DNA of 64,000 nt, taken from positions 124,001 to 188,000 of the forward strand of contig NZ_MCZK01000102.1 of the NCBI RefSeq assembly GCF_002875945.1. The letters are read 5' to 3'. The stretch is from Vibrio lentus (lineage in GTDB: Bacteria; Pseudomonadota; Gammaproteobacteria; Enterobacterales; Vibrionaceae). Under the pieces are notes generated by a model, which had not been told where the DNA came from, ran no database searches, and was given only the letters and a program-made list of their open reading frames with translations. The translations under genes and the position numbers were made by a program. This document shows positions 1,792-24,510 of the stretch, piece by piece; the stretch's first letter is position 1; every line of letters begins with the position of its first letter.

Positions 1792-2886
1792 TTAGTTTTT
1801 ACCCGAGTAACGAAACGCTTCTCTGGTTAACTGATTCAATTCCTCATCCGTCATTTTGTTGTGCACAACATTAATGCGCCCCAAATAAACCAACGGAACT
1901 TCCGCTTCTCTCTCTTCCAAATGAAACTTGATGGCTTCAGCCGTTGCCACACCAAGATCATCGCTCATTCGCATGGGTGTCGCATCCAATTCGTCTGAAC
2001 GAATCTTTTCTATCTCTTTTGCTGTTCCGCCCCACCCCGTGACATAGATTTGCGATAGCATACCGGCTTTACCTAATGCATCTACAGCGCCCATGGTCAT
2101 CGCTGTATTGGCATTATGAATCATGGTCACTTCAGGGAAATTACCGAGCACCAAACGAATCCCATCAGCCCCACCAATTTTTTGATACTGCCCAAAGTGC
2201 TCATACACGGTTAGCCAGTCACCTTTTTCCTCTACGCAATCAATGAAACCTTGCGAGCGTTGAGTATCAGTGATGCCCGGAATCCCTCTATTTGCAGAAA
2301 ACTCCACCTCATCACCTAACTCTTCCAACACATGGTGACACAGCACTTTCGCGCCCATCGCACTTGAGAAATCGAACCAACTGTCTGGTTGGTGTTTCCA
2401 TTGTTCATTCGGTGTGTGAAAAGCCCAAATAAAGGTTTTGAACTCTGTTGAAGCAGACAGTTTTTGAATATTTTCGGCTTGCATTCCAAGTTCAGAAGGG
2501 CCAAAAATCACGAAGTCATAGGGCGTATCTGAGCTCAAAACTTGATCGGTATATTGGGTCTGTAATGAGTGTTCAATTTGTCTCGAAGTAAACTCTCTGA
2601 TCTCGAATGGCAACTCCAACGCAATCAATCTTTTCTTCAATGCAGTGTAATTTCTTATCCAAAAGTCAGAAATATCTGCACTTGGGTAAATTAGTGCAAT
2701 TCTCACTGGGTTTTCAAGAGAGCTAGCTTCCAAGACGATTGGCTCGCCACTTACAGTCTCTTGAAATTTATCCAGTTTTATCAAATCGGCGTCAGACCTT
2801 ATGCCATCAGCGCTCACGTACCAAGGAAGCGTAAAACAAGCGGTTAGCAGGGTTGGTAAAATGTTTTTATAAATCTGACCCATCAT
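1792..2886 (-). CDS. LuxP-family periplasmic binding protein (AI-2 receptor paralogue)
   Basis: Exported type I periplasmic binding protein of about 364 residues, close in length and pattern to Vibrio LuxP. From memory of V. harveyi LuxP the shared landmarks are the SDFW segment, a central Arg, the GWGG motif, MRMSDD and the C-terminal AFRYS. The AI-2-contacting Ser, Trp, Thr and both Arg appear kept, but the LuxP Gln77 position is Asp and the Asn159 position seems to be Ala, so the ligand may differ from furanosyl borate diester. No LuxQ gene is present. The gene is divergent, across about 80 bases, from a binding protein plus GGDEF-EAL pair, which suggests it feeds that pathway. I chose ATG 2886 over an upstream TTG at 2898. 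Confidence 0.8.
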   Translation of the reverse strand: MMGQIYKNILPTLLTACFTLPWYVSADGIRSDADLIKLDKFQETVSGEPIVLEASSLENPVRIALIYPSADISDFWIRNYTALKKRLIALELPFEIREFTSRQIEHSLQTQYTDQVLSSDTPYDFVIFGPSELGMQAENIQKLSASTEFKTFIWAFHTPNEQWKHQPDSWFDFSSAMGAKVLCHHVLEELGDEVEFSANRGIPGITDTQRSQGFIDCVEEKGDWLTVYEHFGQYQKIGGADGIRLVLGNFPEVTMIHNANTAMTMGAVDALGKAGMLSQIYVTGWGGTAKEIEKIRSDELDATPMRMSDDLGVATAEAIKFHLEEREAEVPLVYLGRINVVHNKMTDEELNQLTREAFRYSGKN

Positions 2887-2967
2887 AACTGTTACCAAAT
2901 GTTTGAATGTTTATTAACAATATTATAAATATATACCGACAATGATTTAAAGCACTTTATAGAATTC

Positions 2968-4086
2968 ATGAATAAGATAATTAATTTTGCGAGTTTGTTG
3001 CTTGCTACCACCTGCTACTCAAACAGTTTTGCAGGTAATCCAGAAGACGATTTCTTCCTATACGCTGAAGAAAAAGTAATGAGAGCGGTGTCCAGTCAAC
3101 GAACTTGGGGAGGGCCAACACAAGGGCCTGCTGTGCGTCATGAAAAGAGTGTTATCTTCGTCGCGTCTGACCTACGTAATGGTGGCGTGTATGGCGTAGG
3201 GAAAGGCATATCTGAAGCCATTTCTCACATCAACTGGCATCTAAGGTTCATCGATGGTTTGGGCTCAGAAGTGCGCCAAGGTGCGGCGATCAGAAAAGCG
3301 ATCGGCTTTGAGCCCGATGCCATTGTTCTCGGTGGGATTGATGCCGTCCGACACAAAGACATATTAAAACAAGCCGAAAGTCTCGGGATTGTTGTCATTG
3401 GGTGGCATGTGACTGAATTGGCGGGTGGAAACCCAGATATTGGCTTGTACACCAATATCACCACCGACCCTCTCGATGTGGCCGAAATAGCGGCCCTACT
3501 CGCGATCGTTAACTCAAATGGTCGAGCCAAAACCGTGGTGTTCACCGACCCTAATTATGAAATAGCGATGATCAAAGCCAACGCTATGGTCAACACGATT
3601 AAACGTTGTAAAACATGTCAGGTTCTAGAACTGAACTACCTACCATTAGAAAAAATCGCCGAGCAGATGCCCGCGACATTAAAAACGCTAGAGAAGAAAT
3701 ACGACGAAAAAATCACGCACATGCTAGCAATCAACGATCTATACATTGATTACGCTATCCCTTCTCTCGAGTCCAATCTCGAAGAGTACAGACTGATTCC
3801 ACAAAACATTTCCGCTGGCGACGGAAGCAAAGCCGCATACAAAAGAATTAATAGTGGTCAGTTCCAACTGGCAACCGTCCCAGAGCCCCTGTATTTACAA
3901 GGCTGGCAAATTGTCGACGAACTTAATCGAGCCTTTAACAATATGCCACCGAGTGGCTACTCTGCACCTGTTCATCTAGTCACGCCAGATAATGTCGAAG
4001 AGCTCATAAGCCAAGAAGACAAAGGTATTTACGACCCTAAAAACGGCTACCGTGAAGCGTATCTGAGAATTTGGAAGCCACAATGA
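2968..4086 (+). CDS. Sugar-type periplasmic substrate-binding protein, signalling partner
   Basis: A 372-residue protein with a cleavable signal peptide (about residues 1-22) and a ribose/galactose-binding type fold: SVIFVASDLRNGGVYGVGKG opens lobe 1, DAIVLGG and GIVVIGWHV follow, and MLAINDLY with ISAGDGS marks lobe 2. The four Cys include an R-C-K-T-C pair that could form a disulfide. No transporter permease or ATPase is nearby. Its stop overlaps the start of a membrane GGDEF-EAL gene (ATGA), so it is most likely a ligand-sensing partner of that protein, as NspS is for MbaA. The ligand is not predictable from sequence alone. Confidence 0.75.
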   Translation: MNKIINFASLLLATTCYSNSFAGNPEDDFFLYAEEKVMRAVSSQRTWGGPTQGPAVRHEKSVIFVASDLRNGGVYGVGKGISEAISHINWHLRFIDGLGSEVRQGAAIRKAIGFEPDAIVLGGIDAVRHKDILKQAESLGIVVIGWHVTELAGGNPDIGLYTNITTDPLDVAEIAALLAIVNSNGRAKTVVFTDPNYEIAMIKANAMVNTIKRCKTCQVLELNYLPLEKIAEQMPATLKTLEKKYDEKITHMLAINDLYIDYAIPSLESNLEEYRLIPQNISAGDGSKAAYKRINSGQFQLATVPEPLYLQGWQIVDELNRAFNNMPPSGYSAPVHLVTPDNVEELISQEDKGIYDPKNGYREAYLRIWKPQ

Positions 4087-6557
4087 AATTACGTCAGATA
4101 AACATCACCCAACGACTCATTATTTCGAACCTTTTATCGTTATTGATCGTGAGCCTCGCCGTCATTATGGTGATTAGGTCGCTCTATTACGTAGAATCAA
4201 CACTCAAAACCGAAACCTCTACACACGTTTCAGAGTTGATAGTGAACTCCGAGATCAGCCGTCGAGTGTTCACTTTAACGTCTAGAGTGAAGTTACTCGA
4301 ACAGACCTTTTTATTCAGTGAAACCACACTGTCGGAAGAGGCATTTAACGTGGATCTCCAGCTCCAACGACTGAGAGATTTGTCGACCAATGAAGGATTT
4401 TCGCAAAAAATTGATGCCTTTATTAACAACTTTCACCGATTCTTAGGCAGCTCTCTGGCACTGAACAGAATCTTTAAACAGACCAATAAAATTGATGCGA
4501 CCTTGGCCGAACAACTCAACCAACTCGAATTTGCTATCGCCGACAGTAAACTTAGACACCTAGATAAACCTGACTTCATTCGTTATAACAACGAGTTAGA
4601 TCTCATCAACATGTTGCGTGAGTCTTTTCTTACCTCGGGGAAAATGGTCGGTGATATTCACAGCCGTATCACCCCAGAAACCGAAAAAGTGCTGCTTATT
4701 GAAGTAGAAAAAGAACTCGATATTTTCTTACTTCACCTAGAAAACGTTGATATTGAAACTGCCGCTGTCATCGCAGAGAAAAAACGCATCAACCGCACGG
4801 TTAAACGATACAACGCCGCCCTAAAACGCATTAGAGCCAACTTAGAGCAACGTTGGTTAGTAATGGCGTCACTCTTAGAAGCACAAAGCGACTTGTTGGA
4901 AATGGTAGAAAACACCGAGTCACGCGTTCAAATTCAAGCCTTAGAACTAACCGATCAACTTGAAAAAGAGATCGGTTTATCAAGGTTGAACGCCATTGTT
5001 ATGAGCTTTTTCGCTATTGTATTGTCGATGCTGTTAGTTAACCACGTGGTTAGACACCACATCAGACAACCCCTCAACGCACTAAGGCATGGTTTCGATC
5101 GTTTAGAGTCCGGTAGCCTCAAACACCCAATCAACTTAGGCAGAAATGACGAGTGGTCCCACTTAGAAAAAGCCTATAACAACATGGCATCAAGGTTGTC
5201 TGAAGCCTATTTGGATCTCACAGAGGAGAAGAAGAACTTCGACTTCCTCGCCCACCACGATCCGTTGACCAACTTAGCAAATCGACTATTAGCAACCAAA
5301 CAATTAGACAAAGAAATTGAACGTTCGAGTGAGAACAACGTACCTTTCTTATTGTTTTATCTCGATATTGACGAATTTAAGACCATCAATGACTCGTTAG
5401 GCCACGCACCAGGCGACAACCTATTGGTCAATGTCTCTGACATCCTAAGTAACCTGGTCGGAGACAAAGGCTTTGTTGCTCGAATGGGTGGAGATGAGTT
5501 TTTGGTTATGTACTCGAACGTTGGTTTAGATGAGGGCGAACCAATCGCCGACCGCTTAAACCAAGCATTGAGAAAACCTTATTACATTGATGACAACTCT
5601 ATCTTTGTGTCAGCCAGTATCGGCGTATGTGAATATCCAACTCACGGTTTGGATCGTGAAACCTTAATTCGAAACGCAGATACTGCCATGTATCACGCCA
5701 AACGCAATGGAAGAGACCAGTACAGAGTTTATGCTGACGAAATGACCCATGCGGTCAATGACTTAATCGAAACCAATATGGGACTTCATCAAGCCATCGC
5801 CAATGACGAACTGGAAGTCTACTTCCAACCTAAGGTAGATTTGAACTCCCAAGACATCATTGGAGCCGAAGCTTTGATTCGATGGAGACATCCCAAGCTA
5901 GGGCTACTGCCACCGGTTGATTTTCTTGAAGTCGCCGAGAGGAGTGACTTGATCATCGACATTGATAAGTGGGTATTTAAGAAAGTCGCGAATTTAATCA
6001 CCGAGTGGCAACGCTCAGGCTTAGATCTTCAGGGGGTGATTTTCTCCATCAACTTCTCAGCAAGAATGTTCTACATGACCGACCTTGCTGAGCAGCTGCA
6101 AGTGATACTCGACGAAACCGATTGTCAGCCGCATCAACTGCTACTGGAAATCACGGAAAGAGACATGATGCGAGACTTTGAAACCTGTTCAAGAACCATA
6201 GAGGTACTTCATTCGAAGGGGTATAAGATTGCGATTGATGATTTTGGTACGGGCTATTCTTCGTTGTCAGTGTTGAAAAATCTATCTGCTGATTGCGTTA
6301 AGTTAGACCGAAGCTTTATTGAAGACATTAACTCGTCAAAGGTCGATTACGAGATCACTTGCGCGGTACTCAAACTCGCGCAAATATTGGATTTCTCAGT
6401 GATAGCTGAAGGTTTGGAAACCCAAAACCACGTTGAAACGCTACGCCAGATCGGTTGTAAATACGCTCAAGGCTATTTCTTTGCGCGACCTTTACCGGTT
6501 AACGATTGGGTATCTTACTTCCAGCTCAACTCAGAACAGAGGCAAAAAGAGGCATAA
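4083..6557 (+). CDS. Membrane HAMP-GGDEF-EAL protein
   Basis: About 824 residues. TM helix 1 lies near residues 12-35, followed by a ~265-residue periplasmic helical sensor, TM helix 2 near 300-325, HAMP, then GGDEF (GGDEF exact at 469-473) and EAL (EAL at 596-598, later DDFGTGYS). Both catalytic signatures look intact, so it may make and degrade c-di-GMP. No RxxD inhibitory site is seen just before GGDEF. The start is ATG 4083, in a 4-base ATGA overlap with the binding-protein stop; a TTG 12 bases upstream is less likely. The overlap implies translational coupling and a shared pathway: the periplasmic helical domain would receive the loaded or empty binding protein. Confidence 0.88.
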   Translation: MKLRQINITQRLIISNLLSLLIVSLAVIMVIRSLYYVESTLKTETSTHVSELIVNSEISRRVFTLTSRVKLLEQTFLFSETTLSEEAFNVDLQLQRLRDLSTNEGFSQKIDAFINNFHRFLGSSLALNRIFKQTNKIDATLAEQLNQLEFAIADSKLRHLDKPDFIRYNNELDLINMLRESFLTSGKMVGDIHSRITPETEKVLLIEVEKELDIFLLHLENVDIETAAVIAEKKRINRTVKRYNAALKRIRANLEQRWLVMASLLEAQSDLLEMVENTESRVQIQALELTDQLEKEIGLSRLNAIVMSFFAIVLSMLLVNHVVRHHIRQPLNALRHGFDRLESGSLKHPINLGRNDEWSHLEKAYNNMASRLSEAYLDLTEEKKNFDFLAHHDPLTNLANRLLATKQLDKEIERSSENNVPFLLFYLDIDEFKTINDSLGHAPGDNLLVNVSDILSNLVGDKGFVARMGGDEFLVMYSNVGLDEGEPIADRLNQALRKPYYIDDNSIFVSASIGVCEYPTHGLDRETLIRNADTAMYHAKRNGRDQYRVYADEMTHAVNDLIETNMGLHQAIANDELEVYFQPKVDLNSQDIIGAEALIRWRHPKLGLLPPVDFLEVAERSDLIIDIDKWVFKKVANLITEWQRSGLDLQGVIFSINFSARMFYMTDLAEQLQVILDETDCQPHQLLLEITERDMMRDFETCSRTIEVLHSKGYKIAIDDFGTGYSSLSVLKNLSADCVKLDRSFIEDINSSKVDYEITCAVLKLAQILDFSVIAEGLETQNHVETLRQIGCKYAQGYFFARPLPVNDWVSYFQLNSEQRQKEA

Positions 6558-21017: not shown

Positions 21018-22124
21018 ATGAAAACTCCATATTTGGTAGGAATCGGCATTGCTATAACGTGTATTTCAATCGCAGCCTTAGTTTATGATGCTGCATCGTT
21101 CGACACTCACCATTCCCATGATGAGGAAAACAAAGCACCCCCTTCCTTAACTAGCGAGCATTCACACAAAAACACGAGCGCTAATACAGGTATCAGCAAT
21201 AACACAGGCATTAGCAACACAGGCGTCAGTTCTTCTGGTTTGCAAGTTTTCCCAATTCCCGATTCCATAGAAATAGACCACAAACTCGCAAGAATTGGGT
21301 GGGCACTGTTCAAAGACCCTAACCTCTCCTCAAATCAAAGCGTCAGCTGTGAAAGTTGTCATAGCTTAAAAACGAACGGAGCTGAAGTGATACCTGTGTC
21401 TATTGGCGTCAATGGCGCTGGAATGCGAAATTCACTCACGGTCTTTAACGCTGTCTTTAACTATCGATTCTTTTGGGATGGACGAGTGAACAACCTTGCT
21501 GACCAAATTGATGGCCCGGTGCACAACGTCGATGAAATGGATTCCAACTGGGAACTCATTACCAATTATGTATCCCAGTCGGACGACTACATTGATATGT
21601 TCCAAGCAGAACAGATACCCATTGATACTGCGTCGATAAAAGCCGTTTTAATTGAATTTATGCAAGGGCTAACCACCCCAGATGCGCCATTTGATCAGTA
21701 TTTACGTGGTGACACGAATGCCCTTTCTGAAACCGCACAACGCGGGTGGGAAACCTTTCAAGAAGAAGGCTGTATCCGTTGTCATCAAGGCACCAATATT
21801 GGTGGAGGTATGGTGATGCGATTCGGATATTTTGGGTTATCAAAGACAGGTTCAGAACGAAGTGAAGATCAAGGCCGCTTTATGTTTACTGCTCAACCTC
21901 AAGATAAACATCTATTTCGTGTCGCGAGCCTTAGGAATGTCGCGATTACGGCCCCCTATTTTCACGATGGACAAACCGCTACGTTAGAAGAGGCGATTAA
22001 GATTATGGGAGAGAGCCAGTTAGGAAAAACATTTGAACAACAAACCATTAGCGACATCAAAGTGTTTCTCGAATCTCTCACCGGTAACCGACCTCAGATG
22101 TTAGTGGAGTTTGAAAATGAATAG
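21018..22124 (+). CDS. Membrane-anchored di-haem cytochrome c peroxidase-family protein
   Basis: 368 residues. An uncleaved-looking TM helix (residues about 5-24) is followed by a His-rich stretch (HHSHDEE) and a Ser/Asn/Gly linker with an internal NTGISN repeat, then the bacterial di-haem peroxidase/MauG fold: N-terminal haem CESCH, LTVFNAVFNYRFFWDGR, C-terminal haem CIRCH near residue 253, and FRVASLRNVAITAPYFHDG. Classical members reduce H2O2 in the periplasm with electrons from cytochromes. Here it overlaps a hybrid histidine kinase by 8 bases, so a sensory role (peroxide or redox) is likely in addition to, or instead of, catalysis. Confidence 0.85.
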   Translation: MKTPYLVGIGIAITCISIAALVYDAASFDTHHSHDEENKAPPSLTSEHSHKNTSANTGISNNTGISNTGVSSSGLQVFPIPDSIEIDHKLARIGWALFKDPNLSSNQSVSCESCHSLKTNGAEVIPVSIGVNGAGMRNSLTVFNAVFNYRFFWDGRVNNLADQIDGPVHNVDEMDSNWELITNYVSQSDDYIDMFQAEQIPIDTASIKAVLIEFMQGLTTPDAPFDQYLRGDTNALSETAQRGWETFQEEGCIRCHQGTNIGGGMVMRFGYFGLSKTGSERSEDQGRFMFTAQPQDKHLFRVASLRNVAITAPYFHDGQTATLEEAIKIMGESQLGKTFEQQTISDIKVFLESLTGNRPQMLVEFENE

Positions 22125-24510
22125 AATCAGGCTCATATTCTTACTCTTTCTGGCTTTATTCATTGGCTTAGTCAGTTTGCTTACTCTCACCTATTTTGAG
22201 CATGAGAAGATCGCCAAATACGGAGGGGTCGTTCGAGAATTAGGGCATGAAGTGCTTGAGATGCGGGACCAGATAACCAGTACTGCCATTGCAGGTATCT
22301 CTAACCCCTATCAACTTTCAGCAAGCCTCGTGAACTTAGAAAAAGAACTGCAGAAACTCAAACAGAGCTATCAAAATACCAACATCCACTCCTCTTTATT
22401 TAGTGGGTTACCTACCGAACAATTACTCGATAATTTTTACCTGTCTTCAATGTCCAACATTGATACATTGGATAACCTTGTCGGTTTAAGTGTTGCACGC
22501 CAGTTTATCCTTCAATCTCTTACCAAGCGACTGATGGAAAGCGATTCTTTATCGCCTACATCGAGGATTAAAAGCGATCTTCTTGCTAGCATACTTCAAA
22601 TTGAAGCCGACCTTCCTCTGCAAGAAGAAGACTCAGATTTAGCACAACTGACGACCACATTTACTGAGCTGCATTTACAGCAAGGTGAGTTATTGTCAGG
22701 GATCCTCTCCGTTCAGAGCATGGAATACCTTGAACACGTTGAGCATGAGTTCACGAACCTACAAGATCAACTTAAAGGGCTTATTATTAAGCTTTTAGGG
22801 ATACTTTCCATTCTGATCTTCGCATTCTCGTTTGCCATTTTTATCCTGCGAATCTTTGAGTTAAAACGCAACAACCTAGCCTATCAGCAAGCCGCGGATA
22901 CGGCGCAAAAAGCCAATGAAGCCAAGTCTTTATTCCTCGCGACTATGAGCCATGAATTAAGAACCCCAATGAATGGTGTACTCGGTATTGCCCAGATCAT
23001 CAAAGATGATTCACAAGAAGCAGATACCCGTAAGCAAGCACAGGTGATCATTGATTCTGGCCAACACTTAGTCACAATACTTAATGACATTTTGGACTTT
23101 TCTAAAGTCGAACAAGGGAAAATGGAGTTGGAATACAGCCCGTTCTCAGTTCGTGATGTTGTCACCCACCTAGATAAAACACTCACTCCTCTTGCGGCTG
23201 ACAAAGGCGTCACTTTTACGATAAAAGATAACATCCCATCGAATATTCAATTAATTGGCGACCCGGCTCGTACCCGTCAAATACTCTTCAACCTCGCGGG
23301 GAACGCGGTCAAATTCACGGAGTCAGGAAAAGTCGAGGTTCAATTCGAGATTGCCAAAACCACTCCACCCAGCGTGAATATTTTAATCACGGATACCGGT
23401 ATTGGGATTGCAGAAGACAAAATCGACCATATATTCACAGCCTTTGAACAAGCCGAGCTTTCAACAACACGCAAGTTTGGCGGAACAGGTTTAGGCTTGT
23501 CGATTGTGAAGCAATTGGTCGAATTGATGGGCGGAAACATTGTAGTGACTAGCCAACTGAATGTTGGGACTCAGTTTTCACTGTCTTTACCACTCGAAAT
23601 GAAAGAGCTTGCAACAACAATAGAGGAAAAAGTCGAAAGCAAAACCAATACGGCTCTCGAAGACTTCACCGTCTTACTCGTTGAAGATAACAAGATAAAT
23701 GCCATGGTTATCAGAAAGTTCTGTGAATCACTCAACTTATCGGTAGAGAACGCTTACGATGGATTACAAGCACTCGACAAGTTAGCCTCTAACCAATATG
23801 ACTTGATCATCATGGATAACCACATGCCGAATATGAGTGGTATTGAAGCGATACAAAGAATTCGAAACGATCTCAAACTAACAACAGTGGTCTTCGCCTG
23901 TACAGCGGATGTCTTCAAAGAAGCACATGATGAATTCCTTGTATCTGGAGCCGATTTCGTTCTCACTAAACCCCTGCAAAAGAACAGCTTACAAAATGCC
24001 ATCAACGAATTTCACGAGCAGTTCGAGATACACAGAAATCAGATAGCTTTAACAAGCAGTAATAGCTCCCGTCATCACGACAACAATATCACCGTGTTAA
24101 CTCGCCACCCCAAAAACAAGCTACCCATTACTGAAGAAGAGATATCTAGGAGTCAATTACTCGTTGGAAACGAGCTTGGAAATGAAGAGAAGCTCGAATG
24201 CTTAGAATCGCTGGTAAGTGACTTAGAAAGCCAAATTGACGCACTGATAGAGATATTCTCGACAGCTAAGCCTGACGATTTACGCAGTACATTACATGCA
24301 GTAAAAGGCACGGCCACTAAGTTCCAAATGACAGAGGTACTTGATCTTGCCGCGTCAGCAGAATATACGACCGAACAACACCTCATGCCAGAGGCAGAGT
24401 TACTTCAACAGCTGATCAATCGATTGATGGTGAACAGCCACCAAGCTACGCGTCTAATACACAAACTCCACCAGCAATCTAAAACAACAAGAAATGAAGC
24501 ATCGAAATAA
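22117..24510 (+). CDS. Hybrid sensor histidine kinase (HisKA-HATPase-receiver-HPt)
   Basis: 797 residues. TM helix 1 near 4-25 and TM helix 2 near 224-246 enclose a ~200-residue helical periplasmic sensor. Then come HisKA with His279 (MSHELRTPMNG), HATPase (NAVKFTESG, DTGIGI, GGTGLGL), a receiver with Asp567 (IIMDNHMPNM) and an HPt domain with His727 (LHAVKGTA). This is a full phosphorelay in one chain, architecturally like ArcB/TorS kinases. The partner response regulator is not in the window. The start is ATG 22117 within the end of the di-haem peroxidase gene; a TTG two codons earlier is less likely. The overlap marks the peroxidase as the probable periplasmic signal input. Confidence 0.9.
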   Translation: MNRIRLIFLLFLALFIGLVSLLTLTYFEHEKIAKYGGVVRELGHEVLEMRDQITSTAIAGISNPYQLSASLVNLEKELQKLKQSYQNTNIHSSLFSGLPTEQLLDNFYLSSMSNIDTLDNLVGLSVARQFILQSLTKRLMESDSLSPTSRIKSDLLASILQIEADLPLQEEDSDLAQLTTTFTELHLQQGELLSGILSVQSMEYLEHVEHEFTNLQDQLKGLIIKLLGILSILIFAFSFAIFILRIFELKRNNLAYQQAADTAQKANEAKSLFLATMSHELRTPMNGVLGIAQIIKDDSQEADTRKQAQVIIDSGQHLVTILNDILDFSKVEQGKMELEYSPFSVRDVVTHLDKTLTPLAADKGVTFTIKDNIPSNIQLIGDPARTRQILFNLAGNAVKFTESGKVEVQFEIAKTTPPSVNILITDTGIGIAEDKIDHIFTAFEQAELSTTRKFGGTGLGLSIVKQLVELMGGNIVVTSQLNVGTQFSLSLPLEMKELATTIEEKVESKTNTALEDFTVLLVEDNKINAMVIRKFCESLNLSVENAYDGLQALDKLASNQYDLIIMDNHMPNMSGIEAIQRIRNDLKLTTVVFACTADVFKEAHDEFLVSGADFVLTKPLQKNSLQNAINEFHEQFEIHRNQIALTSSNSSRHHDNNITVLTRHPKNKLPITEEEISRSQLLVGNELGNEEKLECLESLVSDLESQIDALIEIFSTAKPDDLRSTLHAVKGTATKFQMTEVLDLAASAEYTTEQHLMPEAELLQQLINRLMVNSHQATRLIHKLHQQSKTTRNEASK

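What the first reader, a model, noticed from the sequence alone, without database searches (positions are those of the whole stretch)
1792..6557. LuxP paralogue next to a binding-protein plus GGDEF-EAL unit, without LuxQ
A LuxP-family protein with partly changed AI-2 pocket positions (Gln77-equivalent Asp, Asn159-equivalent Ala, by memory alignment) is divergent from a sugar-type binding protein whose stop overlaps a membrane GGDEF-EAL gene with both motifs intact. No LuxQ-like kinase or transporter is near. This suggests a c-di-GMP pathway that senses a sugar or AI-2-like molecule through one or two soluble receptors.
Basis: partly seen in the sequence, partly recalled or inferred. Interest (0 to 1): 0.72.

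Follow-up and report, generated by a model that had tools for sequence, protein, structure and literature searches.

The report
Sugar-transporter receptors rewired to c-di-GMP
A three-gene unit shared by vibrios and some other marine bacteria sets two sugar-transporter-type binding proteins beside one membrane protein predicted to make and break the signal c-di-GMP, so the cell would likely sense an outside sugar-like molecule to steer behaviour instead of importing it.

Summary
The three genes are real: LPX (LuxP-like), PBP2 (sugar-binding class) and DGE (TM, helical periplasmic domain, TM, HAMP, GGDEF, EAL); PBP2 and DGE overlap. The arrangement is conserved: 20 of 148 genus genomes have DGE, and all 20 have the three genes together, 3 of them damaged. 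Of the best 80 named loci with an LPX relative, 34 (Vibrionaceae, Oceanospirillaceae, Pseudomonadales bins) have DGE-PBP2-LPX; the other 46, mostly alphaproteobacteria, have LPX as binding protein of an ABC transporter, and in 34 of these 46 a second ABC transporter with a PBP2-family binding protein lies directly upstream. LPX is thus not a recent LuxP duplicate; the genome has a separate LuxPQ. At LuxP's seven AI-2 contacts, sensor- and transporter-linked LPX are identical to each other (35 and 46 proteins) and differ from LuxP (10) at two. DGE's predicted sensor resembles TorS and McpS, weakly. Best reading: PBP2, aided by LPX, carries a sugar-like ligand's signal to a bifunctional c-di-GMP enzyme, as NspS does for MbaA. 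Ligand, binding and output are untested.

The parts
1792..2886 (-). LPX: periplasmic binding protein (364 aa) of a LuxP-like family, with signal-like N-terminus
   Evidence: Peripla_BP_4; LuxP 1jx6 E 1.8e-41
2887..2967 (.). 81-bp divergent intergenic region; conserved TGTTACCAA and AT-rich blocks
   Evidence: 10 loci aligned; function untested
2968..4086 (+). PBP2: periplasmic sugar-class binding protein (372 aa), predicted sugar-binding-protein fold
   Evidence: (pLDDT 90.8)
4083..6557 (+). DGE: membrane GGDEF-EAL protein (824 aa), start overlaps PBP2 stop (ATGA)
4182..4982 (+). DGE periplasmic domain (about residues 34-300), predicted all-helical, weak likeness to TorS/McpS sensors
   Evidence: hydropathy
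5049..5201 (+). DGE HAMP domain (residues 323-373)
5250..5720 (+). DGE GGDEF domain; GGDEF motif at 5487-5501
5784..6491 (+). DGE EAL domain; EAL motif begins at 5868

Best explanation
The three genes form one conserved unit of two sugar-transporter-type binding proteins and a GGDEF-EAL membrane protein, in which the binding proteins likely no longer serve a transporter but would carry the presence of an outside sugar-like molecule to the membrane protein, which is predicted to make or break c-di-GMP in response. Shown: gene order, domains, intact GGDEF and EAL motifs, conservation, the ABC-transporter kinship of both binding-protein families, and no adjoining ATPase or permease of those families in this lineage. 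Inferred: PBP2 is the direct co-receptor of DGE, because a PBP2-DGE pair occurs without LPX; it docks on the helical periplasmic domain as TorT does on TorS; ligand-bound PBP2 shifts DGE between cyclase and phosphodiesterase, as NspS does with MbaA. LPX, found with DGE in 20 of 20 genus genomes, would be a second input on the same sensor, or a modulator of PBP2. Its seven AI-2-site positions are the same in transporter- and sensor-linked members, so its ligand is likely that of the transporters: a small sugar or sugar acid, perhaps borate-bearing.
For: Trio in 20 of 20 genus genomes that hold DGE, of 148 searched; 17 of these trios show no break. Trio in 34 of the 80 named loci kept, with 17 groups of flanking genes on one side and 18 on the other. 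PBP2-DGE overlap. GGDEF and EAL motifs in 34 of 34. PBP2-DGE pair without LPX in Marinomonas MED121 (sensor 35% identical). PBP2-family binding protein beside a GGDEF-only membrane protein in two genomes. ABC kinship: permease beside LPX kin in 46 of 46 other loci, ATPase in 45, PBP2-family ABC directly upstream in 34. Sensor model: first Foldseek rows TorS-TorT 3o1h (E 1.5e-3) and McpS. NspS-MbaA precedent: passages of PMC8967002. Seven AI-2-site positions identical in 35 sensor-linked and 46 ABC-linked proteins.
Confidence: 0.62

Rival explanations
1. Only PBP2 and DGE form the receptor; LPX is a divergent neighbour with another partner or role, for example buffering ligand in the periplasm.
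For: PBP2-DGE occurs without LPX in MED121; LPX is divergently transcribed; LPX alone is split in G006.
Against: With DGE as query, LPX was still beside it in 20 of 20 genus genomes, though broken in two. The 34 named loci were found with an LPX query and do not count here.
Confidence: 0.22
2. An AI-2 quorum-sensing branch: LPX binds AI-2 and signals through DGE instead of LuxQ.
For: LuxP is the nearest solved relative (by profile); five of seven AI-2 contacts kept, both arginines included; the genome encodes LuxS.
Against: Asp and Ala replace Gln77 and Asn159 in 81 of 81 LPX-family proteins, against Gln and Asn in 10 of 10 LuxP; the genome already has LuxPQ; kin are ABC binding proteins; DGE has no LuxQ periplasmic domain.
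Confidence: 0.1
3. Both proteins still serve ABC transporters encoded elsewhere, and the nearness of DGE is regulatory only.
For: Both families are ABC binding proteins in other bacteria.
Against: No adjoining ATPase or permease of these families in 34 of 34 loci; PBP2-DGE overlap is operon-like; the lactonase gene common beside the ABC kin is absent (SMP-30 in 0 of 34 loci). A whole-genome search for the cognate permease was not made.
Confidence: 0.06

Closest known systems
NspS-MbaA of Vibrio cholerae (polyamines; PMC8967002, passages seen)
   Same: Soluble periplasmic binding protein acting on a membrane GGDEF-EAL protein
   Different: Here two Peripla_BP_4 sugar-class proteins; ligand unknown; likeness of the two sensor domains was not tested
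TorT-TorS (PDB 3o1h, 3o1i; titles seen)
   Same: The sensor model resembles the TorS sensor, which was solved in complex with TorT
   Different: Output is GGDEF-EAL, not a kinase; likeness is fold-level only (9-16% identity). That TorT is a periplasmic binding protein is recalled
LuxP-LuxQ (AI-2)
   Same: LPX is homologous to LuxP (about 30%), five of seven AI-2 contacts kept
   Different: No LuxQ-type periplasmic domain or kinase output; two contacts differ; a separate LuxPQ is in the genome
Neighbouring ABC sugar transporters of Rhodobacteraceae and kin (L148-L193)
   Same: Same two binding-protein families, in 34 of 46 loci side by side
   Different: There each has its own ATPase and permease; here none adjoins, and a c-di-GMP protein stands beside them
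ArtI-STM1987 of Salmonella (PMC8846402, passages seen)
   Same: A periplasmic binding protein is needed for a membrane c-di-GMP protein to respond
   Different: dCACHE sensor and L-arginine; that STM1987 is a cyclase is recalled

Membership tests
LuxP-LuxQ AI-2 receptor | Binding protein homologous to LuxP | tested here: met
   E 1.8e-41 to 1jx6, residues 43-364; 30% identity to the genome's LuxP
LuxP-LuxQ AI-2 receptor | AI-2 hydrogen-bonding residues of LuxP (seven, per PMC9687752) | tested here: not met
   5 of 7 kept; Gln77 to Asp71 and Asn159 to Ala155 in 81 of 81 LPX-family proteins
LuxP-LuxQ AI-2 receptor | Partner kinase with LuxQ periplasmic domain PF09308 | tested here: not met
   DGE lacks it; the genome's LuxQ elsewhere has it
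NspS-MbaA type pair | Binding-protein gene next to a membrane GGDEF-EAL gene | tested here: met
   PBP2-DGE overlap at 4083-4086; same order in 34 of 34 named trio loci
NspS-MbaA type pair | Polyamine-binding (PotD-like) binding protein; the family name is recalled | tested here: not met
   Both proteins match only Peripla_BP_4 in Pfam
NspS-MbaA type pair | Ligand-dependent switch between cyclase and phosphodiesterase | not testable with these tools
   GGDEF and EAL motifs intact; activity needs an assay
TorT-TorS type sensor | TorS-type helical sensor fold | tested here: inconclusive
TorT-TorS type sensor | Histidine kinase output | tested here: not met
   GGDEF-EAL output
ABC sugar transporter component | Cognate ATPase and permease beside the binding protein | tested here: not met
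   Adjoining in 0 of 34 trio loci; permease in 46 of 46 and ATPase in 45 of 46 of the other loci

The most novel reading that the evidence does not exclude
Both binding proteins of a tandem ABC sugar system were taken over together, their two transporters were replaced by one TorS-like GGDEF-EAL receptor, and the result is a two-input c-di-GMP sensor for breakdown products of ascorbate or related L-sugars (diketogulonate, L-xylulose, L-xylosone or threonate type, perhaps as borate esters), telling marine bacteria of algal or animal tissue.
Probability: 0.12. Interest if true: 0.82.

Novelty: new variant of a known kind. Interest (0 to 1): 0.62.

Why it matters
A 2022 review says that of the 27 families of the periplasmic-binding-protein clan, which is prevalent in GGDEF, EAL or HD-GYP proteins, only one (SBP_bac_3) had been studied in c-di-GMP networks (PMC8846402, passage). 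This unit would add sugar-class receptors as separate proteins, a possible two-receptor design, and a before-and-after pair: the same binding-protein families in transporters (Rhodobacteraceae and kin) and beside a c-di-GMP protein (vibrios, Marinomonas). That makes it testable how uptake proteins become signalling proteins, and the transporter relatives give a way to find the ligand by growth and binding tests. It also warns that some database proteins named LuxP (for example P0123, P0139 and P0150) belong to a family that probably does not bind AI-2.

Tried and rejected
LPX as an AI-2 receptor: rejected as the main reading for the pocket, kinship and LuxPQ reasons above. LPX as a duplicate of the genome's LuxP: rejected by identity (30% to LuxP, 53-61% to ABC kin) and tree (LuxP against the rest 100/100). 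A LuxQ-like kinase in the window: one match, in the gene at 22111-24510, without LuxQ periplasmic domain.

Direction from transporter to sensor: not settled. In the LPX tree the sensor-linked rows need 2 changes and form one side of a branch in only 8% of bootstrap trees; in the PBP2 tree the outgroup branches are very long. Joint origin of both proteins from a tandem cluster: not shown; PBP2 is 38-42% identical to the 36 cluster-type proteins compared, 40-44% to four Vibrio ABC proteins and 44-54% to 20 database relatives, some of which are DGE-linked themselves, and the trees put cluster proteins and other ABC proteins together on the far side of PBP2.

Ligand from neighbours: SMP-30 lactonase genes are in 24 of 46 LPX-ABC loci. 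Of the 40 full-length ones 23 have it, against 3 of 20 control loci (other Peripla_BP_4 proteins of six of those genomes), Fisher p 0.0022; but the loci are related, and the LPX-ABC loci of those six genomes have it in 3 of 6. Against the ascorbate idea: LyxK, UlaD, UlaE and UlaF are in 0 of 46 LPX-ABC loci, YiaK in 1, otn genes (OtnI, OtnC, OtnK) in 2; LtnD-like in 20 and PdxA-like in 8 (control 2 and 0 of 20). For it: of 12 ABC loci of the PBP2 family all have SMP-30, 7 UlaD, 6 LyxK, 6 UlaE, 4 YiaK; no control was run for these, and several are near-copies. The window's genome gave no UlaD match (the tool warns that an empty answer shows nothing by itself).

Sensor domain in Pfam: HAMP in 31 of 31 members, no sensor family in common; weak matches only. 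Class-wide search with the sensor profile: 1 of 369 genomes, the window's own, at E 1e-8. PBP2 in the PDB by sequence: none at 1e-3 with one sequence, weak matches by profile; fold neighbours are sugar-binding proteins of many kinds and do not name a ligand. Literature: the listings of seven searches showed no description of this trio; the library lacks most subscription papers.
Full report
What is there. The window holds three adjacent genes: LPX (1792-2886, minus), PBP2 (2968-4086, plus) and DGE (4083-6557, plus); PBP2 and DGE overlap by four bases. LPX and PBP2 match Pfam Peripla_BP_4; DGE has HAMP, GGDEF and EAL domains. Hydropathy gives two membrane helices at about residues 11-33 and 301-323, so about 265 residues would face the periplasm. 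GGDEF and EAL motifs are intact in DGE and in 34 of 34 named relatives; a further EAL-domain motif (DDFG) was found in 33 of 34. The window is part of a 5.68-Mb genome; of the 120 best of 222 database relatives listed for the DGE sensor, the closest with a name are from Vibrio lentus and other Vibrio.

Conservation in the genus. In 148 genomes of the genus (up to six candidates of each were scored), a DGE orthologue (70% identity or more) is in 20. The same 20 have an LPX orthologue at 70% or more and a PBP2 at 67% or more. All 20 surroundings were read and keep the order. Three are damaged: in G134 LPX and PBP2 have lost their facing parts, LPX also an inner part, and DGE is in two frames; in G130 DGE is interrupted by a 1,039-base insert with a transposase-like frame; in G006 LPX is in two frames. 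Each of the 20 has a further LPX relative at about 30%; in the window's genome this is the LuxP of a LuxPQ pair. Six more genomes have a PBP2 relative at 42-45%, each beside ABC-type ATPase and permease frames (family models run for one of them).

Named relatives. A profile of LPX gave 172 relatives, of which the best 80 were kept. Of these, 34 (L114-L147: Vibrio, Grimontia, Enterovibrio, Marinomonas, Oceanobacter, two Pseudomonadales bins) have DGE, PBP2 and LPX in one order (in L145 the LPX protein matched the ABC-type reference slightly better). No permease of the ABC families used matched in these 34; weak ATPase matches lie 4.5-8 kb away in five. Flanking genes fall into 17 groups on the DGE side and 18 on the LPX side. 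Five Marinomonas and Pseudomonadales rows fall in one clade with all Vibrionaceae rows (100/100), joined to V. penaeicida and kin at 92/70 in the LPX tree but unresolved in the PBP2 tree; this hints at transfer of the three genes as a unit.

Kinship. The other 46 (L148-L193, mostly Rhodobacteraceae and other alphaproteobacteria, with four genome bins named as Gammaproteobacteria, Thiotrichales or Granulosicoccaceae) have the LPX relative beside an ABC permease in 46 and an ATPase in 45 (one locus is cut by the contig end). In 34 of 46 a complete second ABC transporter with a PBP2-family binding protein lies directly upstream; in 2 it lies elsewhere in the locus; in 10 it is not seen, three of these being short or cut. 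Pfam confirms the six components in one Ruegeria. PBP2 of the window is 38-42% identical to the cluster-type proteins and up to 54% to other database relatives; in the trees the DGE-linked and ABC-linked proteins are sister groups.

PBP2 and DGE as the core. Marinomonas MED121, besides the trio, has a second PBP2-DGE pair without LPX; its sensor is 35% identical to the window's. In an order-wide search 19 of 295 genomes had a PBP2-family protein, five of them in the genus. Of the 14 others, 9 were read: one trio, six ABC transporters, and two genomes of one genus with the binding protein beside a 543-residue membrane GGDEF protein without EAL. That binding protein falls among ABC-linked ones in the tree, on a long branch, so coupling of this family to c-di-GMP proteins may have arisen more than once.

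Ligand. Seven LuxP residues hold AI-2 (PMC9687752, passage). At these positions 35 sensor-linked and 46 ABC-linked LPX proteins are identical to each other, while 10 of 10 LuxP proteins differ from them at two (Gln77 and Asn159, here Asp and Ala). This argues for one ligand class shared by sensor and transporter, and against AI-2. V. harveyi LuxP also answers to L-xylosone (about 2 uM) and L-xylulose (about 6 uM), according to passages of PMC12921845, which also names Gln77 and Trp82 as contacts of the C-4 hydroxyl. ABC relatives of PBP2 sit with lactonase, xylulokinase-like and 3-keto-L-gulonate-phosphate decarboxylase genes; one LPX-ABC locus sits with L-threonate and oxo-tetronate genes. 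That these compounds are linked through ascorbate breakdown is recalled. Against it, the xylulose-route genes are absent from the LPX-ABC loci (LyxK, UlaD, UlaE and UlaF in 0 of 46). L-sugars and sugar acids are therefore the first to test, no more. Of the catabolic markers, only an OtnI-type match was seen beside the trio, in 2 of 34 loci.

Mechanism. By analogy with NspS-MbaA (PMC8967002, passages), ligand-bound PBP2 would dock on the periplasmic domain and shift DGE between making and degrading c-di-GMP, with LPX as second input or modulator. Docking, ligand, direction of output and LPX's part are all inferred.

Novelty. Binding-protein control of c-di-GMP proteins is known, so this is a new variant. 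New here, as far as the listings of seven searches show, are sugar-class receptors, two of them beside one GGDEF-EAL protein, and their kinship with ABC binding proteins that are often neighbours in other bacteria.

Noticed in passing
L043:6962-8000 (genome G130): A 1,039-base insert with inverted ends and a transposase-like frame of about 316 residues interrupts the DGE gene in one relative.
   Followed up: partly
L049 (genome G134): LPX and PBP2 have lost their facing parts, LPX also an inner part, and DGE is in two frames: the whole unit is decayed.
   Followed up: partly
L136:3426-8767: Marinomonas sargassi carries two DGE genes in tandem behind PBP2; their sensors are 56% and 47% identical to the window's.
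   Followed up: no
L223:1240-3978 and L224:6914-9652: A PBP2-family binding protein followed by a membrane protein with GGDEF and a weak HAMP match but no EAL, in two genomes of one genus.
   Followed up: partly
L148:3026-11053: LacI-type regulator and two complete ABC transporters in tandem (double-length ATPase in the first, single-length in the second), each with its own binding protein.
   Followed up: partly
window 22111-24510: Hybrid histidine kinase without LuxQ periplasmic domain, directly after a di-haem cytochrome c peroxidase gene and near a sulfatase gene.
   Followed up: partly
window 2887-2967: Divergent intergenic region with well conserved blocks across 10 loci; a shared regulatory site is possible.
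   Followed up: no
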